In this document: piece by piece, positions 8,131 through 64,000 of the stretch
How the letters are laid out: each line of letters opens with the position of its first letter
Numbering within the stretch: position 1 is the first letter of the stretch
From: Acanthochlamys bracteata
Lineage: Eukaryota > Streptophyta > Magnoliopsida > Pandanales > Velloziaceae
DNA: 64,000 bases
NCBI GenBank assembly: GCA_019914995.1
Contig: CM034145.1
Coordinates: 3,224,001-3,288,000, forward strand
Reading direction: 5' to 3'
Program-made: the position numbers and the translations under genes
Notes under the pieces: model-generated
Told to the model about the DNA's origin: nothing
The model's database searches: none
What the model saw: only the letters and a program-made list of their open reading frames with translations

Positions 8131-9227
8131 TATAGGTCTTGTTTGGCTGTGCTTTGTTGGATATTAAGCTCAAAAAAAAAAAGTACAAACTAGTAAATTA
8201 AGTGTTTAGATATTACAAATTTAAGCTGCTTTAGGGTACTTTCAATAATTGTATTTAAAAAAATATTTTAGAAATGCTTTTAAAGAAAAGCACCGCTGCA
8301 CTTTTTTGGCTACCCTGCGAAAAGATGATAATGGTAATGATAAGTTTGTAAAATTACCATGTTATATAAATTATTTTATTGCATCTAATTCACCACATCT
8401 TCTCATTTCTTCCTCCTTCATTCTGTGCTGCTCCACTCTTCAAACCCTGGCTCTCTCGGTCGACACCAATCTCCGACGCTGATGATCTTTTCGTCTCCGC
8501 CAGCAAATAGAGTCTTATTTTCTCCGTCTCATACAGCTAAAAAGCCAAATATTTTTTCATCCCGACACCGATCTCAATCTCGTTTTCTTGACTTCTTCGT
8601 TCGGCCAATCTCGATCTCGTATGCTTTGGATTTTCTTTACTATAGCTCTTCCCGCCATATCTTCTGTCGATCTAGTATGTTTGGATTTTTTTTTAGTGTG
8701 TTTTTCCTTTTTTGTTTTTGTTTTTGTATTGACGATAATGGTTTAACAGAACGGTATAGTAATTTTTGAGTGTGTATGGCATGTGTATTTGCGCTTTATT
8801 TGTTTCGCGTATATGGCTTAGTATTTTTTTGTTCTCAGTTTACAGTGCAAATGGTGAGTTGTTTTTCATAACAATTTGCAATGCTTGTTGTTTTTTTCTC
8901 AAGTAATGCTTGCAGATGGTGAGTGCTTCTCCATGCAGTTCATATAGTTCTTGCATATGATGAGTGCCTATAGATATTATTGTTCCTCTCTCGGATTTAA
9001 TAGTGAAACTAAAAGTATTATTATTTTAATTCATGTTGTGTTTTTAATTATTTTTTTTTACTTGACATGTTTAGATTGCTCTATGCAAAAGTATTGTATA
9101 TGTAATCTTTCATTGAGCTTCTCTCCCTTGTGGTATAAATGTATTTTACTAGCTTTGCACAGTCATTTTTTTTTTTGTGTATTGCTTTTGAATAATACTA
9201 AAATGAGATGCTTGGTTGTCTTATAAT
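8131..9227. other. Unassigned region, possible left part of a DNA element
   Basis: At 8135-8165 the sequence reads like a plant DNA-transposon end (gtcttgtttggctgtgcttt), followed by motifs such as aatgcttttaaagaaaagcac. A pyrimidine-rich stretch at 8390-8660 resembles a gene leader. Open frames here are short and unrecognised. I could not find a matching inverted end to the right, so the element idea is weak. Confidence 0.25.
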
Positions 9228-10200
9228 CTTGGAGCCCCTTTTGACGGCATGATAGGAATTCTTATATTGAATGAGATGTTTGTCTAATTTAATTGTTAAT
9301 GATATCATGATAGTGGAATGGATGCTACACTTATCTTAACCAAATATATTTGGTTGTTGCCTATATGTATCCTTACTGGCTCTATGATAATTTTTTAGAG
9401 ATTGTTGGTTATCCTTACCGGCAAGTATTGAATTTTAAGATATATTTGCATATGCTTGCCCCAATCGGCCCTATCTTGATTCTTGAGAGATTATCGCCTA
9501 ACCTTGCTGCCCCTATGATGATCTCTGAGGATTTGTTGTCTTAGACATTGCTAAAATGAGATAATTTGTTGCCTTATTATCTTACAGCTCCTTTTGGATG
9601 ATATGATAGAAATTGTTATCTTAAATGAGATGTTTGGCTAGATTTATGATTATTGATATCATGATAGTAGAATGAATGCTACACTTATCTTAACTAAGTA
9701 TATTTGATTGTTGCCTATACTTACCCTTACTATCCCTATAACGATTTTTAATAGATTGTTGAATATCCTTACTAACTTGGCTTAATTTTTCAGATGTTGT
9801 TGCCTATGTTTACACTTGATGCTCTATGATGATTTTTTAGAAATTGTTAGTTATACAATGTTAACATGAGATAATTGGCTATCCTTGCTGGCCTATTTTT
9901 TGAATTATTGTGGTAGTATAGCTTGTTGCTGTATGATGATTTTTTAGAGTTTTTTGTTTTATACAATGCTAAAATAAGATGTTATTCTTGTTGGCATATT
10001 TTTTGAGTTATTATGGTAGTATTGTCTATGGTCAGCCTTGCTGTTCTATGATGATTTTTTAGGGTTTATTTTTGTCTTATATAATGTTAAAATAAGATAC
10101 TATCATTGCTGGTTTTTGGAGTTACTGTGGTAGTGTTGTCTATGCTCAGCCTTGCTCTCCCTATGATCATTCTTTAGAATCTTTTGAGGGATTTGTTTCA
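9228..10200. repeat. Degenerate direct-repeat cluster (about 195-bp pair plus about 110-bp units)
   Basis: A block of about 195 bp at 9228-9420 recurs at about 9580-9777. Shared strings include gatatcatgatagt, gaatg.atgctacacttatcttaac and tttg.ttgttgcctata. To its right a shorter motif, ctatgatgattttttag followed by an aatg.taaaat.agat segment, recurs near 9818, 9926, 10040 and 10155, a spacing of about 110 bp. Related copies lie near 9380, 9512 and 9735. No protein is recognised. Confidence 0.6.
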
Positions 10201-28682: not shown

Positions 28683-31600
28683 ATGCGAATCCAGATGCAA
28701 TCGGTTCTCTTGATCTTGTTGGTTGCTCTTTTCAGCTGCGCTGCACCGTCGCAAGCTCTCTACTCCGCTTCCTCTCCGGTTGTTCAACTCAATCCTTCCA
28801 ATTTCAAATCCAAGGTTTGTTTATTTGTTTTTCCTATCTAGTTGTCTGCTTTCATTTGAACGAAGAATTCCACGGATCACTAGCTCTCCGGCTGTTAACT
28901 ACTCGAAATCTCTCTCGTATTCATCAAACAATAGATGTAAGGACTAAAGAAGCTTTGATCATTTTGAATTGTGATGGTGCATTCGCTGTCAGGGCCCATA
29001 ATTATCTGATAGCGCAATGAAAGATATGAAGAACATTTTTGGTAAATCAATAGATCTTTTGACAAGTTCTCAGTTATGAATTTTTACAATCAGATAAATT
29101 AATATCATGAAGTCACTGAGGAAATGCAGATTTGACCGGCCATATTTAATATAATCTTTCATACATGGTGGGGATCTTGGGAGTGATGGTTACTGTCATA
29201 AGATAGTTAGTGCTGATTTATTATCAATTTGGATTTTTGGCCATTGCAGGTGCTTAATTCGAATGGTGTTGTTCTAGTGGAGTTTTTTGCGCCATGGTGC
29301 GGCCACTGTCAGAAACTAGCACCTGCTTGGGAAAAGGCTGCTAGTGTTTTGAAGGGTGTAGCCACTGTTGCTGCTGTTGATGCTGATGCCCACCAGACCT
29401 TAGCTCAGGTTTCATGATTGTTTCTTTAATTTTTAAAGTCTGACAGTTTGTCGCTTTGATAATAATGTGTTATCTAGACAAATCCCACTTCTAGGTCAAT
29501 GTTTGCCTTTGCTTGAGATCGTTTATTTATTAAATTTGTGTCTGGTGATCGTTATCTTTTCTTTTCTCCAAGACCATCTAGTATCAGTGTTATTTGACTT
29601 ACTGTATTTCTAGTTGTTATTTGTGAGGTTATTATAGCTATGTTTATGGCCTCCATTTCTCGATGAGAACTGTTGACAGGAAGGAAATTTCTTGCCCTTC
29701 TATTGCCATTTCCCTGTCTGGATCCCATGACTTGCTTGATTCAGCCACCGTCTAATTAATTTTTCATGCAAAAGTTTCTTAAACTTCAATTAATTGAGCA
29801 ACAATTAAATCAGGCTGGGTATATAAGTTGTCTTTGTCAATGACAGTAAGTTGTTGAATGGTCAGGATAGTTTCTCAATGACCAACAGCTCAAGTCACAT
29901 AAATGCATCAACTTCAAAGATCCAATTTCTGGTTGCAGAAAAATTGCTAATGAGTTTCTAACCGCATGCTGTGAAGATTTTGGTTGGCAAAATATGCCGC
30001 TATGATATCAGCAACAGAAACATTTTGGTTGCCATGTATTGCTTTTAGCTACAAAGTTATATTTTGGTTGCTATTTCTTCAATCAATTTGAAGGTCCTGT
30101 GAAGCTAACACCTGGTGTAGCTTTTTAGCCCTACTGCAGAAAAAGCCAACATTAACTACCAAAAAGGAGTTTCAGTTAAAAAATGAAAAAATACAAAAGA
30201 AGAACCCTACTGCAGTAAAAACCAACATTAACTACCAAAAAAGAGTTTCAGTTAAAAAATGAAAAAATAGAAAAGAAGGATAAATTAGCTTCAAGCAACA
30301 AAGTAATATGTCAATGTAGTAAGATATAAGTGATTTTACGCAAAGGTCTAATTTTTTTATTTAATCCCTAGAGCTCCTTGGTGGATAGAAATTTGTGACC
30401 CTTTAACACACCCTCAAATGTTTTTGTTATCCTAAACTACTAATATGTACACTTTTTGGGAGGGACAAGCCATATACTCTCTCATTTAACTAAAAAAGAA
30501 GATGTACAGTCTGTTAAAATATTTCCAAAATTGCCTCCAAAGAGGTCAAAGTTTTTGGTCCAAATCAGGTGGGTATTCAAATCATGTTCTAGGAAGTTAA
30601 CTCCAGGCATATTCTATGGATTTTAATGTTTATTACCAACTAGTACTTGAAAATGCATATTGATCAGATTTGTCATTTCTCAGCCTCCCCACTAATCAAA
30701 TTCCTAACCATTGTGCTACATAACTTTAGAAATTATCTTCTACGCTGGTTGTGTGATTGTTCACAAGTTAGTGGTTTTTAATGACTTTGCTACTTCCTCC
30801 AATATGAAAGATGTCACTTCTATCTTTGTTTGACTTGAAGAGAACTGTCTAACCTGACCTTAGGAAGAGATTGGTGTTTGCTGATCAAGTCTAGCCAAGT
30901 TAAGTGCCTAATTGTGTCTAGTGATTTCAAACTATCACTTGATTATGCATGGTCTTCTTAGATGAAGCCTTATAAACTAAAGTCATCATAAAGATTCTCT
31001 CCCCAAGTACACATTTCTTTCATTTCCATTTCCACTAGAGTGATAATGAGCGTTCCTGCTAACAGTCTACTTCATCTCAGCCGTTTCCTAGTTCTTCTAT
31101 ATGTATTTTTGTATATATTTTTAGCAGGGGTCTCTTTTAACTTTGGAATAAGCTTAGAAAAATATGAACCTTTTTGCCCTCTCTTTACTGGAGTCATTGT
31201 AAACAGTGATGCAATTATGCTCTACTTTCCTATAAACTGCCTGCTTTCCTAAAAGGTTTGTTTGCATACATCTGTAGCTTATGCTTATGTAAATGTCCCA
31301 TTTCCATGGCCCCATATAATGGTACACCATTATATTTTTGTCAAATGAAATGTTTGACATTTTTAGTCATCAAGCCGCTGTTGTTACTGTTGTTTCCTGT
31401 ATTGACTATAGTTGCTGCCTCTCTTTGTTCTTTCTGCAGTGGTGGTTGTTTTTGCTTTCCTTCCCTATGTTATAGGCTTAATGTAAGTTCAAAAGCTTGA
31501 AAGTGGATCCGAATAAAAAGTAGCTTGAATTTGAATCTCTGTTTCTAGTCTTTGCATTTCCATAACTTTGGTAAAAGACAAAAAGTATTGTTCAGGTTAA

Positions 31601-34600
31601 TCCTCTGGAATGTTCTTATTTTGGATGTTCTGTCTTGATAGGAGTATGGAATTCGAGGTTTTCCCACAATTAAAGCTTTTGTACCTGGTAAACTTCCAAT
31701 TGATTATCAAGGTGCAAGAGATACCAAACCAATTGTGGAGTTTGTACTACAACAGGTCTGCTATTACACATCCTACTGCTATTCATTATATTTCATTTGA
31801 GCCATTAACTTCAATGCGAGAAACTAAGGTAGAAAAAGTATGTAGCATGGAAGACTTTCTTGAAGATATAGTTTCTTGTCAATGGCTTGCAATAGATACA
31901 TACAGCTGCACCAACTAGTACATGAGGCTTGCTTGTTGTAGTTTGTTTAATCCTGAAATTTATTAAGTGGTTTTTTTTCACGTTTCAGGTTAAGGCTCTC
32001 CTTAAAGAACGGCTAAATGGCAAAACTGGTGGACATACAAATGAGAAAACTGACAAAAGCGAACCAAGTGGTTCAATAGAGTTGACATCTAAAAACTTTG
32101 ACGAACTTGTCTTGAAAAGCAAGGACCTCTGGGTTGTCGAGTTCTTTGCACCTTGGTAAATTAATTATGCTCTATCTGATTAAATTAGCATGCCAGCTAT
32201 CAAATCTGAACTTACTGTTTTGAGATATAACTACTGTGTGATTTTGAACCATAAGTAGAATTGCAACGACAACCATGATTGTCTACAAATGAAAACATAG
32301 ATTTCACCATATTGAACTCGAACACTTGGCATGTAAATGTAAAAATCACATACAGACACATGTAAAACAGTCGCATTAGTCTTATGTGTGATAGTCGTAG
32401 TAAACAAGTTGATAGTTCATATTACAATCAGATTTTCATTTACTTTGTGGTATATGACCTCTGCGTATGCCGATAAGGAAATATTAGTATGAGAACCTTA
32501 CTAGAAATGGTAAAGGCCTAGCTACCTACGTTATTGATTTTGTATTCAGAGACATAAAAATGCTCTTCTGGAGCCGTTCCCATTTAGTGGGATGAGGATG
32601 CTGTTGTTGTTGTTATAGGTGAAGTACTCTTCTGAATTTCTTGTAGTAGATTGAAAGTTTTGATTCATAATAGAGTTGTTTAGAGGATGTACTTCAGTGG
32701 CAGAGTTCAAACATGAAGGACAAGTTTAGTTATAGTTCTGGAAGGTTAGAAAATCTTTATTCATATGGTGTACAAAGTTTGCTGTTTGTTTTCGTTTGGT
32801 TTTAGTTAATCATGCAAAAGAGTTCAATCATATACTGAGAAACTAAAGTTGGTGTTTGCAGCCATAACATGTCATTTGCCAATGGCATCCTGATTCATTT
32901 AACTTACTCTGGGGAAAAGGTCCTTGTGATAACCCCAAGTGAACTGTTAATTTCGGAAACATGAAACATTAATTTTGAGTCTATTTGCAGGTGTGGACAT
33001 TGTAAAAAGTTGGCACCTGAATGGAAAAAGGCTTCCATCAACTTAAAGGGTCAGGTTAAACTTGGACATGTGAACTGTGATGCAGAAAAGGTTAGTTAGC
33101 TATCAGGGAATTCTGGTCAACTTATTCTAGAAAGTTATTATGTTATAGCCCTTTACCATGTTGTTGATATCTTTTGTACTCAGTCCTTGATGAGCAGGTT
33201 TAATGTGCAAGGATTTCCTACTATTTTGGTTTTCGGTGCTGACAAGGATAGTCCATTCCCTTATGAGGGGCCTAGGACAGCTTCTGGAATTGAGTCATTT
33301 GCTCTTGATCAGCTTGAAAAAAATGCCCTTCCGCCAGAAGTGACTGAACTAACTGGCCCAGTAAGGACCTCTCTTTTACTGACTTGAGTTAGATGTACAG
33401 TCTACCTGTTAGTTAAAGATCCTTCTCACTGTCTGTAGGATGTTATGGATGAAAAATGTGTACCCGCTGCCTTATGTTTTGTAGCTTTTCTCCCTGATAT
33501 CTTGGATTCAAAAGCTGAAGGCAGAAATAAGTATATTCAGCTTCTCTTAACAGTTGCCGAGAAGTTCAACAAGAAGCATTATAGGTATGTGTAAACTAGA
33601 AATGCTTTCCCACTTGTTTATATTTGCATCAAAGGGGATCGACATATGTACTTGTTTTATATCATTGATGTCAGTTGAATTGTGTAGAAGCTGTGTGACA
33701 ACAAATAAGGACGAAGTATCCACTATTTTGGAAACCGTTATAATCATCAAATGTGCAAATGTTTTCTTTCAAACTAATGTCTTCTGTGAACTAATGTTGA
33801 TCTAACTGTCAATTGTCCTCCTAAAAGATTTCTCTGTTGAACCAGCTTGAAAAATTATTTTCATTATATATGAAGTTCAAGTACTACTAATTTCATGCCA
33901 GCATTCCTTTAAGTTGTATATTTGAACAAATAGATTAAGATGAATCCATTTATTTGCATCCAAGGCTAGGGAACTAATAGGTGAAACATTCCATTTATTC
34001 ATGATTTTAAAGTTATCATTCTATGTAGGTAGGAAGGAAAGGTAAGTAAACTAATCTCTTTCTGAAGAAGGTGCACTATTCTGTATCGGTCCTGCCCATA
34101 CCTAGTTCTACCTCCAAAATCTACACCAAGAAGCATGCCATTGCATCGATTTTGTGATTTTTACCGATTTTCAGATCAGATGGTGTTTGTAGATGAAAAC
34201 AGGCTATCTAGTATCTCGAGCAATAAATTTTACTGTTGTGCTTATGTAATGAACAACTTAACATCAGTAGGGTATTTGTTATAGTCATAAAATCGTTCTT
34301 TATGGTGCTGATCAATTTGTTGTTATGCTTTGTCCTATTCTGAGTGTAGTGGCAGATGATAACTTATAAATTTTTTTCCAAATCATCTCTCTTGTTGGCA
34401 ACCTCCAAAAAGTTTGGAATAATTTTCTATATAGCACATGCCTATGCTCTCATGAATGGCAACATTATTAAGTGCATTTCGCTATCAGCCAACTGAATTT
34501 GCTTGCTTTTCTATTCTTGAATTGAGTTTACATTGCAATATGAAGTAATCATGGTCTCGTTCTAATCAGTGAATATGCCTTGCAGCTTTCTATGGGCAGC

Positions 34601-48899: not shown

Positions 48900-49565
48900 A
48901 TGCCCAATATCTCTATATCATCTAGTACTTCTTCTATCATCACTCAAGACTCTAATCAACAATTGATTGCCATCAACGTTGCCGCTCGAGCTCCATTAAA
49001 ACTCAATGACACAAACTAACTCTCATGGAACTTTCAATTTAACACTCTTCTTATTGGTTTTGATCTCCTTGACTTCATTGATTGATGTAAACCGTATCCA
49101 CCACCCATTATTTCTACAGACAATTCAGTAATTATCAATCCAGTTTATACTCACTAGAAACGTCAAGATCAGTTGATCCTCAATGCATTCATTGGATCTA
49201 TCTCTTCAGATATTATTCCATTCATTGCCGGTGTCACTACCATCCGTGACGCTTGGCATACTCTTGCCAACACCTATACCAAGCCAACACGTGGTCGCCC
49301 ACTACAAATTCGAAGTCATCTAAAAAATCGTCAAAAGGATTCTCAAATTGTCACTGAATACTTACGGAGAATTAAAGGGTATGCCAATAAACTTGCACTA
49401 CTTGGTACTCCTATGGATGCCAAAGGCCTACTTGAGAAAATTTTAGATGGTCTTGGCGATGAATTTCATGATCTTATTGTTGCTCTCCAAGCTCGCGAGA
49501 CTCTAATCTCTCTTGAGGAACTACATGAAAGCTCCTCACTCTTGAAGCCACTCATCGCAATGTAA
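48900..49565 (+). pseudogene. Copia B gag
   Basis: Retrotransposon gag (capsid) frame from the ATG at 48900 (MPNISISSSTSS...). The UBN2-type gag is best preserved at 49173-49565: LNAFIGSISSDI, DAWHTLANTYTKPTRGR and LLEKILDGLGDEFHDLIVAL. In-frame stops interrupt it before 49173. Some fall where the family has Trp (TAG at about 49156, HWKRQDQ). The Ser-rich tail continues, frame-broken, to about 49780. Confidence 0.8.
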
Positions 49566-50193
49566 CATCCAATGCCAACCAATACTAGCGAATGCTAAAT
49601 CCAGCATATAGAAATTCAAGGTCTCGTTCCTCTTTCAAATCTGATCACATAGGCTCTTTTCGTCCCACTATGTCTTCCAACACCGGATCCTCCACGCCAA
49701 CATCTAATGGTGATCGCCCTTCACTAAGACCACATCTTGGTCGTTGTCAAAATCTTTGGCATTCAAAGACACTCAGCTAAGCCGTGCCTATCCTTTAATC
49801 TAGTGCCGATCAATCAAATGCCAACCAACCAAGAGCCAATCAACCGCGGATCCGAAACAAATTATACATCATAGCAGCCATGAGCTAACTTTGCAGCTAA
49901 TACCGGCACATAAATTCTCTCTTAGCTACTTAATGATGGTGCATCCCATCACGTTATCGGTAATCTCAACAATCTCTCACTTCACTCTCCCTACAATAGT
50001 TCCGACGACATTATGATTGGGGATGGCACGGGTTTAGCAATCACCCACCCTAATTCCACTTTCTATTTTACTTTACTCATAATTTTACACTCAATAATAT
50101 TCTTTATGTGCCAAGTATGAAAATTTAATTTCTATTTCTTAATTTTTCCTCACCAATAATATTTCCGTTGAATTCTTACCACATTCTTTTCTT

Positions 50194-51183
50194 ATGAAGG
50201 ATTTTTGTACGGGGGTACAACCTCTTCAAGGGCAAACTAAAGATGGCGTTTATGAGTGGCCAATCATACCAATCCAATCTTCACCATTACTTGCTCTATC
50301 TAGTGTCAAAATCTCTTCATCTAAATGGCATCATAGACTAGGGCATCCATCTCTTCAGATCTTCAAACATATCATATCTAATGGTCAGTTACGATTATCT
50401 ACTTTTATATCAACAATAATTTGTTATAACGATTGTCACTGCAATAAAAGTTACAAGTTACCATTTTCCAAATCAACTCTTACTTTTTTTAAACCTCTTG
50501 AAATTATTTACTCTGATGTTTGGACTTCACCTATTATATCTCATGATGTTTTCAAATATTATGTTATTTTTTTCGATCACTTAACCAAATATATATGCTT
50601 CTACCCACTCAAAATAAAATCTAATGTGCATGACATCCTTATTCGCTTCAAAACTCTTGTAGAAAATTATTTCTCCCACAAAATCATTACTCTTTACACC
50701 GAAATGGTGGAGAATATCAAAGTTTTAAAAATTTTCTCTCTAACAATGGTATTTCTCACCTTATCACTCCCTCATATACTCTAGAACATAATGGATATTC
50801 TGAACGACGTCACCGCCACATTATTGAAACTGATCTCCTTCTTCTTTCTCATGTATCTCTCCCACTTACATATTGGTCTCACGCTTTTGATACCACCGTT
50901 TATCTCATTAATTGTTTACCCACTCCAACACTTCAATTCATTTCTCCCTTTGAAAAAATATTTTTCCATCCACCTAATTATTCCAAACTTCGAGTATTTG
51001 ATTGTTTATGCTCTCCTTGTCTTCGTCCTTATTCATCTCACAAACTTGTCCCTAGATCAAACCATGTGTTTTCTCGACTACTCTATTACACAAAGTGCAT
51101 ATTTTTGTCTTGACACTTCTACCTCCAAAATCTGTCTCGCCACGTTGAATTTATTGAATCTGTTTTTCCTCACTTTAATATAA
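50194..51183 (+). pseudogene. Copia B integrase
   Basis: The frame at 50194-50784 carries the pre-integrase zinc site WHHRLGHPSLQIFKH...CHCN and the start of the catalytic core (IIYSDVWTSPI, VIFFDHLTKYICFYPLK). The second core part is frame-shifted and visible only in fragments to about 51180. The frame change near 50730 and altered residues make it inactive. The protease and nucleocapsid segment between 49780 and 50190 is badly eroded. Confidence 0.75.
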
Positions 51184-51689
51184 TCTTCCCCGTCCTGAGT
51201 CCACCATTGTTGACACATGGGTTTCCTACTCTACTTCTATTTTCACTTTTTCAATTTCCATTGCTTCTTCAGTGGCACTCACAACGTCATCTAACATAGC
51301 ACCACCCACGCACGAAGACCCCTCTAACAATTCAAATTTACCACATACATCACTTGTGCCCCATTCTACCAACACTAAGTATTTTAGTGAACGTCCATAT
51401 TTCAACCAACAACAATCATCCCATGCAAATCAGATCTAAGAACAACATCCATAAGCCTTTTTAAAAAACTCAACTTGACAGCTCAACTATCCGCCTCTGA
51501 TGACTTAGAACCAACAACTACGACCCAACCCTCAAAGATCCTAAATGGCGCCGGGCCATGTCCGAAAAGTTTGATGCTATTGTTCGGAATAGCACTTAGA
51601 AACTTGTTCTATTTGACCGTCACAAAATATTGTGAGATGTAAGTAAATTTTTTGCACTAAACGATTATCTAATGGCTGTATTGATAGGT

Positions 51690-53063
51690 ACAAAACACGT
51701 TTGGTTGCTAAGGAATTTCATCAACGATCCAGAGTGGACTATAATGACATATTTAGTCCAGTTATTAATCCAACAATTGTTCGTCTTGTTCTAAATCTTC
51801 CCATAAGTAGAGGGTGGTCACTTCGCCAGTTTGATGTTAATAATGTATTTCTTCAGGCACACATATATGAAGACGTCTACATGACTCAACCATCAGGATT
51901 TATTGATCCAGACTTTCCCGCTCATGTCTGCAAACTTCGCAAAGCTATTTATGGTCTCAAACAAGCACCACGAGCTTGATATCACGAGCTCAAAACATTT
52001 TTACTTGACTCCGATTTTATCAATTCTTATGCGGATACTTCACTCTTCATTCTTAAGACAGATGTGCATCTCATTTACTTACTTATCTATATTGATGATA
52101 TGATCATTACAAGAGACAGCCACAATATGGTAAAATAATTTGTGGAGCTTCTTGCCCAACGATTCTCATTGAAAAATATTGGGCCATTGTCATTTTTTCT
52201 TAGTGTTGAGATTATTCTACACAACTATGTTCTTTTTCTATCTAAACGATGGTATATTACCGATCTTTTTGTCCGAACTAAAATGATCGATGCCAAACCC
52301 GTCATGACTCTCTTATTCACCAGTCCAACATTAACACTTCATACCGGCACAGTTTTGTCTGATCCAATAGAATTTCGGACTATAGTTGGGAGCTGTCAAT
52401 ATCTGTCTCTCACATGACAGGATATTATATTTGCAGTTAACAAGCTTTCTCAGTTCATGCATCAGCCAACAACTAAGCATTGGATAGCCGTCAAACGCCT
52501 CCTTCTCTATCTATCTGGTACACTGAATCACGGATTACTTTTATATCGTAAATTACCTCTATCTTTGCATGTATTCTCGGATGCTGACTGGGCATGTAAC
52601 AAAGATGATCCATTTCTACTAGTGCCTATGTGGTGTATTTAGGCCGCAATCCAATCTCGTAGAATTTAAAAAAAAAACGGACTATTGCTTGTTCCTCTAC
52701 GAAAGCTGAATATCGTTCTGTTGCCTCTACTACTGCAGAACTCAGTTGGATTTGCTCTCTTCTATCTGAGCTTGGTGTTGAACTTCTAACTACTCTTGTC
52801 ATATATTGTGACAATATTGGTGCTACACATTTGTGCTCCAATCCAGTTTTTCATTGTAGGATAAAACATGTTGTTATTGACTTTCACTTTATTAGGGACA
52901 AAGTTCAAAGTGGTGCTTTGCGCGCTACTCATGTTTCATCACAAGATCAACTGGCTAACGCACTCACCAAACCACTTCCTCAGATACGCTTTCTTCTTCT
53001 TCGGTCCAAGATTGAAATCTCCAATCGGAGCTTCATCTTGCGGCGGCATAATAAGGATATTTG
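51690..53063 (+). pseudogene. Copia B reverse transcriptase and RNase H
   Basis: The RT N-terminal part at 51701-51979 reads [40 protein letters not shown] and [15 protein letters not shown], then TGA where the family has Trp (APRAW). The palm motif YIDDM follows near 52090. FSLKNIGPLSFFLSVE lies at 52160-52210. The SLTRPD block has TGA for Arg near 52416. RNase H shows VFSDADWACNKDD (52570-52610), KAEYRSVASTTAELSW and YCDNIGATHLCSNPVFH (to 52855). The end is DQLANALTKPLPQIRFLLLRSK (52945-53010). Stops are mostly single transitions, so the frame is otherwise long. Confidence 0.85.
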
Positions 53064-53218
53064 ATTCCTTCCTATATTTAGAGTACTTAATTTAGAAAAA
53101 TTATACTTTATTTTATTCTAGAAAGATTTAATTTGGTTTGATTTAAGAAATATTTAACTTTTGGAAACCTTGACTGAATATATATGTGCTCATGCAAATA
53201 AAAAAAAAAATGAATCAT
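53048..53218 (+). repeat. 3' LTR of Copia element B, truncated by the gap
   Basis: Matches 48592-48808 with scattered differences and small deletions. It stops at tgaatcat, where the 5' LTR has about 18 more bases. Confidence 0.8.
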
Positions 53219-53318
53219 NNNNNNNNNNNNNNNNNNNNNNNNNNNNNNNNNNNNNNNNNNNNNNNNNNNNNNNNNNNNNNNNNNNNNNNNNNNNNNNNNN
53301 NNNNNNNNNNNNNNNNNN
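53219..53318. other. Assembly gap (100 N)
   Basis: Exactly 100 N, the usual placeholder for a gap of unknown size. It separates the Copia element from the tandem array, so the distance and the true array start are unknown. Confidence 0.99.
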
Positions 53319-56022
53319 TCTTTTGATTTTCTAATAACTGTTGTGTTACATGATTCTGTTTTTGCTAGAGAATCAAATATGTTATGTTAAGGAGCTTGTT
53401 GCAATTGAGGATGAGTGGATTAATTGCAGTGCTGATTACAAGTGGAGGATATACGCTTAAGGATTTCTCAACTTGCATGTGAAATCATAAATCTCAAAGA
53501 TTTTCTACACGTTGTACAGTTTGCTGTGCGACATTCTCTTTTTTTTTTTAAAAATGAGTTTTATGGAATAACATTTTCAGTTTAAGCCTTGCATGTAAAA
53601 TAGTTTTTTAGAGGATACTTAAACAGGATCGTACTAGCTATAAAAAACTAAGTTTTGATAGAACTTATTTTCTGAACTACTTTGTTTGTCAAATCCTTGC
53701 ATGACTTCGGCTCTTTGAGAATCGTTGAAATGTATTCGTACGTGTTTACTTGTAAAACTTGTGAATCCAACAGAAATTACTACCTTGTAGAGTGAACATT
53801 GATAAATCAATAGAATGTCTTGGTTCATGAACAGATTGAGGAAAGTTTGAATCACGTTCGACAGCTACTAGATGACGTGGGAGGTGGGAGAGGTAGTGCT
53901 AGTGCTAGTGTTGGCTCTAGGAGGTAGTAGTAGTTTAGAGTTATAGCTTGGTTTTTTTGTTCTAATATAGTTCTGTTTTTATTATGCGACTTCTCCAAAT
54001 GCTGTTCTCCTATAGGATGTCTTTTACTGCGCATTCTACTGTATCCAATGCATTAATAAGTTGCTCGAAATTATGCGCCTATCTTGAGTCCATTTTGTTT
54101 AATAATATTAGCAACATTTTGTGACTCCTTCACGCTAATTTGTTCACATTATCAGTTGTAGTAGCGTCTCCGTAAAATGAATACGGAAGGCAAGTTTCAG
54201 AAAAATTGATTATCTTCGAAGATGAATTTTGTCTGAAGTATTTTGGCTAGCTTTCCTTTATTCCTCTCTATAGCTTGTTTTGTTAATTCTTTTTCCTTCC
54301 TTACTCTTTCTTTTTTCGTATGATTTTCTAATAACTGTTGTGTTACATGATTCTGTTTTTGCTAGAGAATCGAATACGTTATGTTAAGGAGCTTATTGCG
54401 TTTGAGGGTGAGTGGATTAATTGCAGTGCTAATTACAAGTGGAGGATATACGTTTAAGGATTTCTCAACTTGCATGTGAAGTCATAAACCTCAAAGATTT
54501 TCTACACGTTGTACAATTTGCTGTGCGACATTCTCCTTTTTTTTTGAAGAATGAGTTTTATGGAATAACATTTTCAGTTTAAACTTTGCATGTGAAATAC
54601 TTTCTAAGAAGATACTTAAACAGGATCGTACTAGCTATAAAAAACTAAGTTTTTTGGTAGAACTTATTTTCTGAACTACTTTGTTTGTCAAATCCTTGAA
54701 TGACTTCAACTCTTTGAGAATCCTTGCAGTTTCTTCCTATGTTTTTGCTTATAAAACTTGTGAATCCAACAGAAATTACTACATTGTAGTGTGAACGTTG
54801 ATAAGTCAATACATTGTCTTGGTTCATGAATAGATTGAGGAAAGTTTCAATCCTGATCGAGAGCTATTCGATGACGTGGGAGGTGGGAGAGGTGGTGCTA
54901 GTGCTAGTGTTGGCTCTACGAGGTGGTAGCAGTTTAGAGTTTTAACTTGGTTTTTTTTGTTCAAATATAGTTCTGTTTTTATTATGCCACTTAACCAAAT
55001 AATGATCTCCTATAGGATGTCTTTTACTGCGGCATTGTACTATATCCAATGCATTAACAAGTTGCCCGAAATTAAGTGCCTATCTTGAGTCCATTTTTTT
55101 AATAATATTAGAAACATTTTGTCACTCCTTCACGCTAATTTGTTCACATTATCAGTTGTAGTGGGGTCTCCGTAAAATGCATACGGAAGGCAAGTTTCAG
55201 AAGAAATGATTATCTTCGAAGATGAATTTTGAAGGAAGTATTTTGGCTAGCTTTCCTTTATTCCTCTCTATAGCTTGTTTTGTTAATTCTTTTCCTTCCT
55301 TACTCTTTCTTTTTTCGTATGATTTTCTAATAACTGTTGTGTTACATGATTCTATTTTTGCTAGAGAATCGAATACGTTATGTTAAGGAGCTTGTTGTGT
55401 TTGAGGGTGAGTGGATTAATTGCAGTGCGGATTACAAGTGGAGGATATACGTTTAAGGATTTCTCAACTTGCATGTGAAGTCATAAATCTCAAAGATTTT
55501 TTGAATTTTTGTACACGTTGTACAGTTTGCTGTGCGACATTCTCTTTTTTTTTTTTGAAAAATAAGTTTTATGGAATAACATTTTCAGTTTAAGCCTTGC
55601 ATGTGAAATAGTTTCTAAGAAGATACTTAAACAGGATCGTACTAGCTATAAAAAACTAAGTTTAGGTAGAACTTATTTTCTGAACTACTTTGTTTGTCAA
55701 ATCCTTGAATGACTTCAGCTCTTTGAGAATCCTTGCAGTTTATTCCTATGTGTTTGCTTGTAAAACTTGTGAATCTAACAGAAATTACTACCTTGTAGTG
55801 TGAACGTTGATAAATCAATACATTGTCTTGGTTCATGAATAGATTGAGGAAAGTTTCAATCCTGATCGAGAGCTATTCGATGACGTGGGAGGTGGGAGAG
55901 GTGGTGCTAGTGCTAGTGTTGGCTTTAGGAGGTAGTAGTAGTTTAGAGTTATAGCTTGGTTTTTTTGCTCTAATATAGTTGTGTTTTTATTATTCCATTA
56001 AACCAAATAATGTTCTCCTATA

Positions 56023-56866
56023 GGATGTCTTTTACTGCGGCATTGTACTGTATACAATGCATTAATAAGTTGCCCGAAATTATGGGCCTATCCTCAGTCC
56101 ATTTTGTTTAATAATATTAGGAACATTTTGTCACTCCTTCACGCTAATTTGTTCACATTATCAGTTGTAGTGGCGTCTCGTAAAGTAAAATGCATACGGA
56201 AGGCAAGTTTGAAAAAATTGATTATCTTGATTATAAATTCATAGTTTTTTGAATAGCTTTCCTTTATTCCTCTCTATAGCTTGTTTTGTTAATTCTTTTT
56301 CCTTACACTCTTTTTTTTTTCGTATGATTTTCTATTTTGTTACATGATTCGACATTCTCGTTTTTTTTTTTTGAAAAATGAGTTTTATGGAATAACATTT
56401 TCAACTTTTAAGCTCATAGATTTTTGAATTTTTGTAAATAGTTTCTTAGAAGATAGTTTTTGGAAAACAGATCATGTGAAATAGTTTCTTATAAAAAACT
56501 AAGTTTTGGTAAAACTTATTTTTACGAACTACTTTGTTTGTCAAATCCTTGCATGACTTCAGCTCTTTGAGAATCGTTGCAGTTTATACCTATGTGTTTA
56601 CTTGTAAAACTTATGAATCAAACAGAAATTACTACCTTGTAGAGTGAACATTGATAAATCAATAGAATGTCTTGGTTCATGAACAGATTGAGGAAAGTTT
56701 CAATCACGATCGAGAGCTACTCGATGACGTGGGAGGTGGGAGAGGTGGTGCTAGTGCTAGTGTTGGCTCTAGGAGGTAGTAGTAGTTTAGAGTTATAGCT
56801 TGGTTTTTTTGTTCTAATATAGTTCTGTTTTTATTATGCCACTAAACCAAATAATGTTCTCCTATA
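56023..56866. repeat. Short, internally deleted unit of the array
   Basis: About 155 bp shorter than its neighbours. Near 56350 the text jumps from tgttacatgattc directly to gacattctc, so the exon-like block present in every other full unit is missing. The segment at 56400-56520 is also scrambled, with atagtttctta present twice. Confidence 0.85.
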
Positions 56867-59800
56867 GGATGTCTTTTACTGCGGCATTGTACTGCATACA
56901 ATGCATTAATAAGTTGCCCGAAATTATGGGCCTATCTTGAGTCCATTTTATTTAATAATATTAGAAACATTTTGTGACTCCTTAAGGCTAATTTGTTCAC
57001 ATTATCAGTTGTAGTGGCGTCTCCGTAAAATGCGTACGGAAGGCAAGTTTCAGAAGGATTGATTATCTTCGAAGATGAATTTTGAAGGAAGTATTTTGGC
57101 TAGCTTTCCCTTATTCGTCTCTATAGCTTGTTTTGTTAATTCTTTTCATTTCTTACTTTTTCTTTTTTTCTTTTGATTTTCTAATAACTGTTGTGTTACA
57201 TGATTCTGTTTTTGCTAGAGAATCAAATACGTTATGTTAAGGAGCTTGTTGCAATTGAGGGTGAGTGGATTAATTGCTTGTGATTGATTAAAGTGGAGGA
57301 TATACGTTTAAAGATTTCTCAACGTGAATGTGAAATCATAAATTTTCAAAGATTTTCTACACGTTATCTGATTTTTTTGTGCGACATTCTCTTTTTTTTT
57401 TTGAAGAATGAGTTTTATGGAATAACATTTTCAGTTTAAGCCTTGCATGTGAAATAGTTTCTAAGAAGATACTTAAACAGGATCGTACTAGCTATAAAAA
57501 ACTAAGTTTAGGTAGAACTTATTTTCTGAACTACTTTGTTTGTCAAATCCTTGAATGACTTCAGCTCTTTGAGAATCCTTGCAGTTTATTCCTATGTGTT
57601 TGCTTGTAAAACTTGTGAATCCAACAGAAATTACTACCTTGTAGTGTGAACGTTGATAAATCAATACATTGTCTTGGTTCACGAACAGATTGAGGAAAGT
57701 TTCAATCACGATCGAGAGCTATTCAATGACGTTGGAAGTGGGAGAGGTGTTGCTAGTGCTAGTGTTGGTTCTACGAGGTGGTAGCAGTTTAGAGTTTTAA
57801 CTTGGTTTTTTTTGTTCAAATATAGTTCTGTTTTTATTATGCCACTTAACCAAATAATGATCTCCTATAGGATGTCTTTTACTGCGGCATTGTACTATAT
57901 CCAATGCATTAACAAGTTGCCCGAAATTAAGTGCCTATCTTGAGTCCATTTTTTTAATAATATTAGAAACATTTTGTCACTCCTTCACGCTAATTTGTTC
58001 ACATTATCAGTTGTAGTGGGGTCTCCGTAAAATGTATACGGGAGCAAGTTTCAGAAGGATTGATTGTCTTCGAAGATGAATTTTGAAGGAAGTATTTTGG
58101 CTAGCTTTCCGTTATTCCTCTCTATAGCTTGTTTTGTTAATTCTATTCATTTCTTACTCTTTCTTTTTTCTTTTGATTTTCTAATAAATATTGTGTTACA
58201 TGATTACATTTTGTTGCTAGAGAATCAAATATGTTATGTTAAAAGCTTATTTGCAATTGAGGGTGAGTGGATTAATTGCAATGCTGATTAGAAGTGGAGG
58301 ATATACGCTTAAAGATTTCTCAACTTGAATGTGAAATCATAAATCTCAAAGATTTTCTACACGTTGTACAGTTTGCTGTGCGACATTCTCCTTTTTTTTT
58401 GAAGAATGAGTTTTATGGAATAACATTTTCAGTTTAAGCCATGCATGTGAAATAGTTTCTAAGAAGATACTTAAACAGGATCGTACTAGCTATAAAAAAC
58501 TAAGTTTTGGTAGAACTTATTTTCTGAACTACTTTGTTTGTCAAATCCTTGAATGACTTCATCTTTTTGAGAATCCTTGCAGTTTATTCCTATGTTTTTG
58601 CTTGTAAAACTTGTGAATCCAACAGAAATTACTACATTGTAGTGTGAACGTTGATAAATCAATACATTGTCTTGGTTCATGAATAGATTGAGGAAAGTTT
58701 CAATCCTGATCGAGAGCTATTCGATGACGTGGGAGGTGGGAGAGGTGGTGCTAGTGCTAGTGTTGGCTTTAGGAGGTAGTAGTAGTTTAGAGTTATAGCT
58801 TGGTTTTTTTGCTCTAATATAGTTGTGTTTTTATTATTCCATTAAACCAAATAATGTTCTCCTATAGGATGTCTTTTACTGCGGCATTGTACTGTATACA
58901 ATGCATTAATAAGTTGCCCAAAATTATGGGCCTATCCTCAGTCCATTTTGTTTAATAATATTAGGAACATTTTGTCACTCCTTCACGCTAATTTGTTCAC
59001 ATTATCAGTTGTAGTGGCGTCTCCGTAAAATGCATACGGAAGGCAAGTTTCAGAAGAATTGATTATCTTCGAAGATGAATTTTGAAGGAAGTATTTTGGC
59101 TAGCTTTCCTTTATTCCTCTCTATAGCTTGTTTTGTTAATTCTTTTCCTTCCTTACTCTTTCTTTTTTCGTATGATTTTCTAATAACTGTTGTGTTACAT
59201 GATTCTGTTTTTGCTAGAGAATCGAATACGTTATGTTAAGGAGCTTGTTGCGTTTGAGGGTGAGTGGATTAATTGCAGTGCCGATTACAAGTGGAGGATA
59301 TACGTTTAAGGATTTCTCAACTTGCATTTGAAGTCATAAATCTCATAGATTTTTTGAATTTTTGTACACCTTGTACAGTTTACTGTGCGACATTCTCTTT
59401 TTTTTTTTTGAAAAATGAGTTTTATGGAATAACATTTTCAGTTTAAGCCTTGCATGTGAAATAGTTTCTTAGAAGATACTTAAACAGGATCGTACTAGCT
59501 ATAAAAAACTAAGTTTTGGTAAAACTTATTTTCTGAACTACTTTGTTTGTCAAATCCTTGCATGACTTCAGCTCTTTGAGAATCGTTGCAGTTTATACCT
59601 ATGTGTTTACTTGTAAAACTTATGAATCAAAATGTAAATTACTACCTTGTAGAGTGAACATTGATAAATCAATAGAATGTCTTGGTTCATGAGCAGTTGA
59701 GAAAGTTTCAATCACGATCGAGAGCTACTCGATGACGTGGGAGGTGGGAGAGGTGGTGCTAGTGCTAGTGTTGGCTCTAGGAGGTAGTAGTAGTTTAGAG

Positions 59801-61880
59801 TTATAGCTTGGTTTTTTTGTTCTAATATAGTTCTTTTTTATTATGCCACTAAACCAAATAATGTTCTCCTATAGGATGTCTTTTACTGCGGCATTGTACT
59901 GCATACAATGCATTAATAAGTTGCCCGAAATTATGGGCCTATCTTGAGTCCATTTTATTTAATAATATTAGAAACATTTTGTGACTCCTTAACGCTAATT
60001 TGTTCACATTATCAGTTGTAGTGGCGTCTCCGTAAAATGCGTACGGAAGGCAAGTTTCAGAAGGATTGATTATCTTCGAAGATGAATTTTGAAGGAAGTA
60101 TTTTGGCTAGCTTTCCCTTATTCGTCTCTATAGCTTGTTTTGTTAATTCTTTTCATTTCTTACTTTTTCTTTTTTTCTTTTGATTTTCTAATAACTGTTG
60201 TGTTACATGATTATGTTTTTGCTAGAGAATCAAATACGTTATGTTAAGGAGCTTGTTGCAATTGAGGGTGAGTGGATTAATTGCACTGCTGATTAGAAGT
60301 GGAGGATATACGCTTAAAGATTTCTCAACGTGAATGTGAAATCATAAATCTCAAAGATTTTCTACACGTTGTACAGTTTGCTGTGCGACATTCTCCTTTT
60401 TTTTTGAAGAATGAGTTTTATGGAATAACATTTTCAGTTTAAGCCTTGCATGTGAAATAGTTTCTAAGAAGATACTTAAACAGGATCGTACTAGCTATAA
60501 AAAACTAAGTTTAGGTAGAACTTATTTTCTGAACTACTTTGTTTGTCAAATCCTTGAATGACTTCTGCTCTTTGAGAATCCTTGCAGTTTATTCCTATGT
60601 GTTTGCTTGTAAAACTTGTGAATCCAACAGAAATTACTACCTTGTAGTGTGAACGTTGATAAATCAATACATTGTCTTGGTTCACGAACAGATTGAGGAA
60701 AGTTTCAATCACGATCGAGAGCTATTCAATGACGTTGGAAGTGGGAGAGGTGTTGCTAGTGCTAGTGTTGGTTCTACGAGGTGGTAGCAGTTTAGAGTTT
60801 TAACTTGGTTTTTTTTGTTCAAATATAGTTCTGTTTTTATTATGCCACTTAACCAAATAATGATCTCCTATAGGATGTCTTTTACTGCGGCATTGTACTA
60901 TATCCAATGCATTAACAAGTTGCCCGAAATTAAGTGCCTATCTTGAGTCCATTTTTTTAATAATATTAGAAACATTTTGTCACTCCTTCACGCTAATTTG
61001 TTCACATTATCAGTTGTAGTGGCGTCTCCGTAAAATGCATACGGAAGGCAAGTTTCAGAAGAATTGATTATCTTCGAAGATGAATTTTGAAGGAAGTATT
61101 TTGGCTAGCTTTCCTTTATTCCTCTCTATAGCTTGTTTTGTTAATTCTTTTCCTTCCTTACTCTTTCTTTTTTCGTATGATTTTCTAATAACTGTTGTGT
61201 TACATGATTCTGTTTTTGCTAGAGAATCGAATACGTTATGTTAAGGAGCTTGTTGCGTTTGAGGGTGAGTGGATTAATTGCAGTGCCGATTACAAGTTGA
61301 GGATATACGTTTAAGGATTTCTCAACTTGCATGTGAAGTCATAAATCTCATAGATTTTTTGAATTTTTGTACACCTTGTACAGTTTACTGTGCGACATTC
61401 TCTTTTTTTTTTTTGAAAAATGAGTTTTATGGAATAACATTTTCAGTTTAAGCCTTGCATGTGAAATAGTTTCTTAGAAGATACTTAAACAGGATCGTAC
61501 TAGCTATAAAAATCTAAGTTTTGGTAAAACTTATTTTCTGAACTACTTTGTTTGTCAAATCCTTGCATGACTTCAGCTCTTTGAGAATCGTTGCAGTTTA
61601 TACCTATGTGTTTACTTGTAAAACTTATGAATCAAACAGAAATTACTACCTTGTAGAGTGAACATTGATAAATCAATAGAATGTCTTGGTTCATGAACAG
61701 ATTGAGGAAAGTTTCAATCACGATCGAGAGCTACTCGATGACGTGGGAGGTGGGAGAGGTGGTGCTAGTGCTAGTGTTGGCTCTAGGAGGTAGTAGTAGT
61801 TTAGAGTTATAGCTTGGTTTTTTTGTTCTAATATAGTTCTGTTTTTATTATGCCACTAAACCAAATAATGTTCTCCTATA

Positions 61881-62893
61881 GGATGTCTTTTACTGCGGCA
61901 TTGTACTGTATACAATGCATTAATAAGTTGCCCGAAATTATGGGCCTATCCTCAGTCCATTTTGTTTAATAATATTAGGAACATTTTGTCACTCCTTCAC
62001 GCTAATTTCTTCACATTATCGGTTGTAGTGGCGTCTCAAGTAAAATGCATCTGAAGGCAAGTTTGTAAGAATTGATTATCTTGAAGATGAATTTTGAAGG
62101 AAGTATTTTGGCTAGCTTTCCTTTATTCCTCTCTATAGCTTGTTTTGTTAATTCTTTTCCTTCCTTACTCTTTCTTTTTTTTTCGTATGATTTTCTAATA
62201 ACTGTTGTGTTACATGATTCTGTTTTTGCTAGAGAATCGAATACGTTATGTTAAGGAGCTTGTTGCGTTTGAGGGTGAGTGGATTAATTGCAGTGCCGAT
62301 TACAAGTTGAGGATATACGTTTAAGGATTTCTCAACTTGCATGTGAAGTCATAAATCTCATAGATTTTTTGAATTTTTTTGTACACCTTGTATGAGCCAC
62401 TGTGCGACATCTCTCTTTTTTTTTTTTGAAAAATGAGTTTTATGGAATAACATTTTCAGTTTAAGCCTTGCATGTGAAATAGTTTCTTAGAAGATACTTA
62501 AACAGGATCGTACTAGCTATAAAAAACTAAGTTTTGGTAAAACTTATTTTCTGAACTACTTTGTTTGTCAAATCCTTGAATGACTTCATCTTTTTGAGAA
62601 TCCTTGCAGTTTATTCCTATGTGTTTGCTTGTAAAACTTGTGAATCCAACAGAAATTACTACCTTGTAGTGTGAACGTTGATAAATCAATACATTGTCTT
62701 GGTTCATGAACAGATTGAGGAAAGTTTCAATCACGATCGAGAGCTATTCGATGACGTGGGAGGTGGGAGAGGTGGTGCTAGTGCTAGTGTTGGTTCTACG
62801 AGGTAGTAGCAGTTTAGAGTTTTAACTTGGTTTTTTTGTTCTAATATAGTTCTGTTTTTATTATGCCACTTAACCGAATAATGTTCTCCTATA
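61881..62893 (+). other. Representative array unit with exon-like segments
   Basis: In this unit a T-rich tract ends in tttttgctag (about 62231). It is followed by an open segment to tttgagg, then a strong donor-like gtgagtgg at about 62275. Downstream, tcatgaacag (about 62713) precedes a segment open in one frame: IEESFNHDRELFDDVGGGR followed by GGASASVG, ending in a stop near 62800 and then UTR-like T-rich text. The same borders occur in the other units. I infer that the unit may descend from the last exons of a gene. I do not recognise the protein family, and no unit carries a full gene. Confidence 0.35.
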
Positions 62894-64000
62894 GGATGTC
62901 TTTTACTGCGGCATTGTACTGTATCCAATGCATTAATAAGTTGCCCGAAATTATGGGCCTATCTTGAGTCCATTTTATTTAATAATATTAGAAACATTTT
63001 GTGACTCCTTCACGCTAATTTGTTCACATTATCAGTTGTAGTGGCGTCTCCGTAAAATGCATACGGAAGGCAAGTTTCAGAAGGATTGATTATCTTCGAA
63101 GATGAATTTTGAAGGAAGTATTTTGGCTAGCTTTCCCTTATTCGTCTCTATAGCTTGTTTTGTTAATTCTTTTCATTTCTTACTCTTTCTTTTTTTCTTT
63201 TGATTTTCTAATAACTGTTGTGTTACATGATTCTGTTTTTGCTAGAGAATCAAATACGTTATGTTAAGGAGCTTGTTGCAATTGAGGGTGAGTGGATTAA
63301 TTGCAGTGCTGATTACAAGTGGAGGATATACGTTTAAGGATTTCTCAACTTGCATGTGAAGTCATAAATCTCAAAGATTTTTTGAATTTTTGTACACGTT
63401 GTACAGTTTGCTGTGCGACATTCTCTTTTTCTTTTTTGAATAACATTTTCAGTTTAAGCCTTGAATGTGAAATAGTTTCTTAGAAGATACTTAAACAGGA
63501 TCGTACTAGCTATAAAAAACTAAGTTTTGGTAGAACTTATTTTCTGAACTACTTTGTTTGTCAACTCCTTGCATGACTTCAGCTCTTTGAGAATCTTTGC
63601 AGTTTATACCTATGTGTTTACTTGTAAAACTTATGAATCAAACAGAAATTACTACCTTGTAGAGTGAACATTGATAAATCAATAGAATGTCTTGGTTAAT
63701 GAACAGATTGAGGAAAGTTTCAATCACGATCGAGAGCTATTCGATGACGTGGGAGGTGGGAGAGGTGGTGCTAGTGCTAGTGTTGGTTCTACGAGGTAGC
63801 AGCAGTTTAGAGTTTTAACTTGATTTTTTTGTTCAAATATAGTTCTGTTTTTATTATGCCACTTAACCGAATAATGTTCTCCTATAGGATGTCTTTTACT
63901 GCGGCATTGTACTGTATCCAATGCATTAAAAAGTTGACCGAAATTTTGTGCCTATCTTGAGTACATTTTGTTTAATAATATTAGAAGCATTTTGTGACTC

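What the first reader, a model, noticed from the sequence alone, without database searches (positions are those of the whole stretch)
53319..64000. 1-kb tandem array with trimeric higher-order structure beside an assembly gap
At least ten full units of about 1.0 kb stand head to tail, and diagnostic variants repeat every third unit over most of the array. Monomers of about 1 kb are much longer than the common 150-180 or 320-370 bp plant satellites. Higher-order organisation implies repeated unequal exchange of 3-unit blocks. The array may be a satellite family specific to this lineage.
Basis: seen in the sequence. Interest (0 to 1): 0.8.

Follow-up and report, generated by a model that had tools for sequence, protein, structure and literature searches.

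The report
Chromosome-specific 1-kb satellite near probable centromere
A plant chromosome carries a tandem array of about 1,000-base DNA units that was found at only one place in its assembled genome, beside what is probably its centromere; it resembles long-unit centromere satellites known from potato, so it is a good example of a known kind rather than something new in principle.

Summary
The array is real. Window 53319-64000 holds nine full ~1.0-kb units, one shortened and two partial ones, right after a 100-N gap. It runs past the window, flips strand, and returns 91 kb further on: at least 76 near-full units between 3.277 and 3.462 Mb of contig C20. A 24-base tag has 68 exact matches in the 195.5-Mb assembly, all there. 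The trimer is genuine but local: units 1-8 show period 3 (27 of 58 informative sites, p=0.002), units 7-11 shift to period 2 at many sites, and the three other blocks long enough to test show no clear lag-3 peak. An older relative nearby, 62-74% alike, has a clearer ~2.2-kb dimeric unit. A pararetrovirus-like reverse transcriptase marks one 500-kb block per contig (76 of 77 listed rows at >=60% identity, 18 contigs); the C20 copy lies inside the satellite complex. Best reading: a non-coding, chromosome-specific, kilobase-unit (peri)centromeric satellite changed by local unequal exchange, like potato's 979-bp to 5.4-kb centromere satellites. CENH3 binding is untested; species unknown.

The parts
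53219..53318 (.). 100-N run (scaffold gap) abutting the array; left extent of the array unknown
53319..53528 (+). partial unit (last 210 bp of the unit) directly after the gap
53529..54525 (+). satellite unit A01 (997 bp)
54526..55534 (+). satellite unit A02 (1009 bp)
55535..56349 (+). satellite unit A03, shortened (815 bp)
56350..57381 (+). satellite unit A04 (1032 bp)
57382..58380 (+). satellite unit A05 (999 bp)
58381..59387 (+). satellite unit A06 (1007 bp)
59388..60385 (+). satellite unit A07 (998 bp), query unit for searches
60386..61392 (+). satellite unit A08 (1007 bp)
61393..62404 (+). satellite unit A09 (1012 bp)
62405..63398 (+). satellite unit A10 (994 bp)
63399..64000 (+). first 602 bp of unit A11; array continues beyond the window to C20:3290965, then on the other strand to C20:3295820
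53529..61392 (+). stretch (units A01-A08) in which diagnostic sites repeat every third unit

Best explanation
It is a non-coding, chromosome-specific satellite DNA with an unusually long unit (~1.0 kb) in the centromeric or pericentromeric block of contig C20. The unit shares an ancestor with an older ~2.2-kb dimeric satellite that still lies beside it. Unequal crossing-over and conversion between neighbouring copies amplify and homogenise blocks locally; now and then three (or two) neighbouring units are copied together, leaving the transient trimer seen in the window, and strand flips split the array into + and - blocks. Shown: array, unit length, local trimer, strand changes in the assembly, older relative, confinement to one place of the assembly, block-wise homogenisation, no sign of coding. 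Inferred: the exchange mechanism and the (peri)centromeric place. That CENH3 binds it is a guess (about 0.4).
For: Layout over 254 kb: young blocks at C20:3277319-3290965 (+), 3290949-3295820 (-), 3387022-3392393 (+), 3392391-3436420 (-, with a 6,779-N run), 3436391-3461856 (+); older relatives at 3296083-3311677 (+) and 3311690-3328639 (-). Confinement: 24-base tag, 68 exact matches in the assembly, all at C20:3280694-3461164, equal to the 68 counted in the fetched region; reversed control 0. Local homogenisation: 92.93% within blocks, 90.63% between, permutation p=0.0005; nearest relative in the same block for 66 of 76 units. Non-coding: conservation along the unit is without an exon-like peak in young units (0.868-0.979 per 50 bp) and older units (0.862-0.958), no frame over 76 aa in the young consensus, no Rfam match in the window at gathering scores, no Pfam match at E 0.001 for the unit frames scanned. 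Place: of 77 listed rows of a reverse-transcriptase family at >=60% identity, 76 lie in one 500-kb block per contig on 18 contigs (three contigs have a single row, which counts trivially), and its C20 copy (3339181) is inside the satellite complex; a Copia frame from the same spot scores 44 of 95 by the same measure.
Against: No CENH3, methylation, Hi-C or FISH data. About 86 kb of young satellite is assembled, small for a centromere core, though gaps remain. CpG observed/expected of the satellites (0.58-0.64) equals that of the left flank (0.62), unlike the neighbouring 1.43-kb satellite (0.33) and a retroelement stretch (0.45); that does not look like old methylated heterochromatin. The marker family is pararetrovirus-like, not a proven centromere element; its 60% cut was chosen after seeing the rows, only 117 of 1180 candidates were scored (Copia 95 of 2489), C20 has only one row at >=60%, C2 and C14 have none, one row (C7:4875223) is off-block, and several of the 42 weaker rows lie elsewhere. 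C19's repeats lie 1.75 Mb from its only marker row. Direct weak relatives of the C20 satellites outside C20 were found only on C8; those on C6, C15, C17 and C19 match another part of the C8 repeat, not the C20 unit.
Confidence: 0.72

Rival explanations
1. A narrower version of the above: pericentromeric satellite only. The array is filler beside the centromere, and the CENH3 domain lies elsewhere (an unassembled or satellite-free stretch).
For: The assembled young array is short (about 86 kb), broken up and mixed with older satellites and retroelements; no pair of 76 near-full units reaches 98%, so recent turnover looks modest.
Against: It is the most homogeneous repeat seen in the 254 kb read; CpG is not depleted, unlike the neighbouring 1.43-kb satellite.
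Confidence: 0.42
2. A chromosome-arm tandem repeat with no link to the centromere, for example a knob or an expanded gene-derived repeat.
For: Position was inferred from a marker element, not measured; CpG level is like that of the flank; the flank has at least one weak gene-like frame (thioredoxin-like, window 33100-33384, E=0.00036, 21 bits against a cut-off of 23.5).
Against: Marker element in one block per contig (76 of 77 listed rows); no coding signal in the unit.
Confidence: 0.18
3. Assembly artefact: a few real units multiplied or misjoined at scaffold gaps.
For: N runs at window 53219-53318, C20:3353005-3353104 and C20:3410483-3417261, the last inside the array.
Against: Near-full units differ pairwise by 2-19% and blocks have their own variants; the array runs without N from 53319 for 18.5 kb across a strand change. 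Exact copy number and joins at gaps remain uncertain.
Confidence: 0.05

Closest known systems
Potato chromosome-specific centromere satellites (Gong et al. 2012, not held; seen through PMC4107277)
   Same: Long units (979 bp to 5.4 kb) and each satellite on one chromosome (PMC4107277, passages).
   Different: Potato arrays are megabase-sized (same passages) and, as I recall, tied to CENH3; here about 86 kb is assembled and CENH3 is untested. The partial retrotransposon similarity reported for potato was not found here: no match of the unit outside satellite arrays in the 254-kb region and none of four primer-binding-site-like motifs in the unit; the rest of the genome was not excluded.
Layered centromere evolution (model cited in PMC10910784 and PMC12046899, passages)
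   Same: Related satellites of different age lie side by side: young ~93% units beside older units 62-74% alike to them.
   Different: Layers are not nested outward: the older block lies between two young stretches, and strand changes occur within both.
Alpha-satellite-type higher-order repeats (features recalled)
   Same: A multi-unit period exists: trimer in units 1-8, dimer in the older satellite.
   Different: Copies three units apart are about 95% alike, little above neighbours (93%), and the period is local. The older dimer fits better: halves 62-65% alike in two aligned pieces, dimers 81-89%, though unit lengths vary from 1.35 to 2.64 kb.

Membership tests
Satellite DNA (long tandem non-coding repeat) | Many head-to-tail copies | tested here: met
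   76 units matching over 890 bp at over 80% identity in the fetched 254 kb
Satellite DNA (long tandem non-coding repeat) | No conserved coding frame | tested here: met
   no exon-like peak of conservation, longest young consensus frame 76 aa; no Pfam match at E 0.001 for the frames scanned. Spliced frames were not modelled.
Satellite DNA (long tandem non-coding repeat) | Concerted evolution (local homogenisation) | tested here: met
   92.93% within blocks against 90.63% between, p=0.0005
Chromosome-specific satellite | Copies on one chromosome only | tested here: met
   24-base tag: 68 of 68 exact matches on C20 in the assembly; weak relatives, 66-75%, on C8. Unassembled copies cannot be excluded.
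Higher-order repeat array (trimeric) | Multi-unit period persisting along the array, with copies of the larger unit much more alike than single units | tested here: not met
   period 3 in units 1-8 only; lag-3 p 0.47, 0.29, 0.055 in three other blocks, two blocks too short to test; maximum pair identity 97.9%
Higher-order repeat array (dimeric, older 2.2-kb units) | Larger unit much more alike than its parts | tested here: met
   halves 62-65% alike, dimers 81-89%; lengths vary
Centromeric satellite | CENH3 nucleosome occupancy | not testable with these tools
   no ChIP data
Centromeric satellite | Location in the chromosome's centromeric block | tested here: inconclusive
   indirect: marker family in one block per contig; position 3.28-3.46 of 6.43 Mb

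The most novel reading that the evidence does not exclude
Each chromosome of this small plant genome has its own kilobase-unit centromere satellite, grown independently from a shared, now badly diverged ancestral set that sits next to a pararetrovirus-rich block; the C20 array catches one such satellite early, with short-lived trimers and dimers and repeated strand flips, and would be the CENH3 site.
Probability: 0.2. Interest if true: 0.6.

Novelty: new member of a known kind. Interest (0 to 1): 0.36.

Why it matters
Long-unit, single-chromosome centromere satellites have been described in some species, potato and chicken among them (PMC4107277, passages). This locus shows young and older related repeats side by side, so the order of events in satellite growth, dimer and trimer formation and strand flipping can be read from sequence. 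If CENH3 sits on the units, it is a compact case for asking why some centromeres do not converge on one short genome-wide satellite.

Tried and rejected
Gene cluster: rejected; the older units looked like a tandem gene family at first, but there is no exon-like conservation and frames are short. RNA gene array: no Rfam match in the window at gathering scores. Origin from an LTR element: none of four primer-binding-site-like motifs in the unit, no match of the unit outside arrays in 254 kb; not excluded elsewhere. Trimer as a general feature: not supported by the three other blocks that could be tested. Relation of the 1-kb and 1.43-kb satellites: no match. Species: one literature search for the assembly size gave nothing. 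One search stopped with a script error after its main outputs; only printed results are used. Genome search by unit found only the far block or none of the young copies, probably because common words are skipped, so the exact tag was used for the count. Literature searches; papers seen as passages: PMC12046899, PMC7004042, PMC5615363, PMC4107277, PMC10910784; all others as listings only; Gong et al. 2012 is not held. I do not claim that this satellite is absent from print. On checking the draft I mended: two of five other blocks had not been tested at lag 3; relatives on C6, C15, C17, C19 match the C8 repeat but not the C20 unit. For the second I lowered the best explanation from 0.74 to 0.72 and the novel case from 0.25 to 0.20, and moved rivals slightly.
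Full report
WHAT WAS CHECKED. The window is C20:3224001-3288000 of a 195.5-Mb genome in 557 contigs; C20 is 6.43 Mb. The plant-type telomere motif TTTAGGG lies near the starts of contigs C2 to C6 in the part of the list shown, so this is very probably a plant and the large contigs look chromosome-scale. After a 100-N run at 53219-53318 the rest of the window is a head-to-tail array of about 1.0-kb units: nine full, one shortened to 815 bp, and partial units at both ends.

THE TRIMER. Over 14 units mean identity at three-unit distance is 94.76%, against 92.89-93.83% at lags 1, 2 and 4-8. Shuffling unit order gives p=0.005 for lag 3 and p=0.03 allowing any lag from 1 to 6. The site-level test is clearer: in units 1-8, 27 of 58 informative sites are exactly period 3, none period 1 or 2, two period 4, p=0.002. 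Results against: with 12 near-full units and lags 1-8, p for any lag is 0.30 (lag 3 alone 0.020), although dropping unit A03 there puts its neighbours out of step; from unit 7 on, many sites follow period 2 (units 7, 9, 11); in three other blocks of the same satellite (17, 14 and 25 units) lag-3 p is 0.47, 0.29 and 0.055, and two blocks of 4 units are too short for lag 3. Different parts of the unit follow different groupings of the copies, a mark of exchange or conversion inside units. So the trimer is real and local, and probably short-lived. It is not a classical higher-order array.

BEYOND THE WINDOW. I fetched C20:3288001-3478000. The array continues to 3290965, changes strand to 3295820, and gives way to an older relative, 62-74% alike in aligned pieces, mostly in ~2.2-kb units (1.35-2.64 kb), + to 3311677 and - to 3328639. 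After 58 kb of other sequence the young satellite returns from 3387022 to 3461856 in +, -, + blocks, with a 6,779-N run. The older unit is a dimer: its halves are 62-65% alike in two aligned pieces, whole dimers 81-89%. Another copy of the older unit is at C20:2863993-2867102. A second satellite, 1.43 kb long and without sequence match to the first, lies at C20:3347-3358 kb, C20:2876-2892 kb and C19:3673-3687 kb.

ONE CHROMOSOME. A 24-base tag present 68 times in the fetched region has 68 exact matches in the whole assembly, all on C20 between 3280694 and 3461164, none for the reversed control. Direct weak relatives outside C20 were found only on C8 (66-75% over pieces). A different part of that C8 repeat, which does not match the young C20 unit, has relatives on C6, C15, C17 and C19 (24 rows in all). 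The link from C20 to those four contigs is therefore a chain, not direct similarity.

WHERE ON THE CHROMOSOME. A reverse-transcriptase frame at C20:3339181, between the older satellite and the second young stretch, matches best a solved 'enzymatic polyprotein' (8r0s, E=2.2e-68; I recall it as cauliflower mosaic virus), ahead of Ty3 (7q5b, E=3e-46), so it looks like an endogenous pararetrovirus. The genome search scored 117 of 1180 candidates and listed 119 rows. At a 60% cut, chosen after seeing the rows, 77 remain and 76 of them lie in one 500-kb block per contig on 18 contigs; three contigs (C6, C19, C20) have one row each, so 73 of 74 rows on the other 15 contigs carry the signal. Several rows can come from one copy. 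Of the 42 weaker rows, some lie in the same blocks and some elsewhere, those at 33-36% being scattered. A Copia frame from the same place (95 of 2489 candidates scored) gives 44 of 95 by the same measure, which includes one row per contig by construction. One block per chromosome is what a centromere or its surroundings would give. Measured to the nearest edge, the repeats named above lie 28, 39, 196 and 213 kb from that block on C6, C8, C15 and C17, around it on C20, and 1.75 Mb from a single row on C19. This is indirect; CENH3 was not testable.

NATURE OF THE UNIT. Conservation has no exon-like peak, the longest frame of the young consensus is 76 aa and of the older one 84 aa, and there is no Pfam match at E 0.001 or Rfam match at gathering scores for what was scanned. 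CpG observed/expected is 0.58-0.64 in young and older satellites, 0.62 in the left flank, 0.45 in a retroelement stretch and 0.33 in the 1.43-kb satellite. Since the older satellite has had time to decay, this fits low methylation, which would suit a centromere core; it is weak evidence.

HOW IT WORKS. Units within a block are 92.93% alike, between blocks 90.63% (p=0.0005), and the closest relative is in the same block for 66 of 76 units. No pair of the 76 reaches 98%; a 592-bp partial unit is 99.0% to A12. This is the expected outcome of unequal exchange and conversion over short distances, with occasional copying of two or three units together and inversions that isolate blocks. The mechanism is inferred.

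COMPARISON. The nearest known case is potato, where six centromeres carry chromosome-specific satellites of 979 bp to 5.4 kb (PMC4107277, passages). [quoted passage not shown] The finding is therefore a new member of a known kind, with an instructive layout.

Noticed in passing
C20:3339181-3340221 (L014:1181-2221, minus): A pararetrovirus-like reverse-transcriptase family is concentrated in one 500-kb block per contig on 18 contigs (76 of 77 listed rows at >=60% identity): a possible centromere marker of this genome.
   Followed up: partly
C20:3347051-3358201, C20:2875897-2892476, C19:3673308-3686822: A second satellite of about 1.43 kb without match to the first; in both orientations around a gap at C20:3353 kb, strongly CpG-depleted there (0.33).
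   Followed up: partly
C20:3296083-3328639: Older dimeric ~2.2-kb satellite in two blocks of opposite strand meeting near 3311680.
   Followed up: yes
window 49158-53064: Copia-type element in broken frames ending near the gap (gag and pre-integrase matches).
   Followed up: partly
C20:3410483-3417261: 6,779 N inside the young array: either a sized gap or a withheld stretch.
   Followed up: no
window 8221-9848 and C20:3474711-3476418: A repeated sequence, 68-76% alike in pieces, lies on both sides of the satellite complex; nature unknown.
   Followed up: no
C20:3329983-3334881 and 3340795-3345763: Two Copia-containing stretches in opposite orientation, 86.5% alike over 5 kb.
   Followed up: no
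window 30129-30278: Two 76-bp tandem copies at 94%.
   Followed up: no
L045 and L046 (C8:5807001-5813000, 5893001-5899000): A 3.6-kb stretch repeated in opposite orientation about 86 kb apart at 95%, containing tandem monomers at 0.8-0.9-kb spacing, in part related to the C20 satellites.
   Followed up: partly
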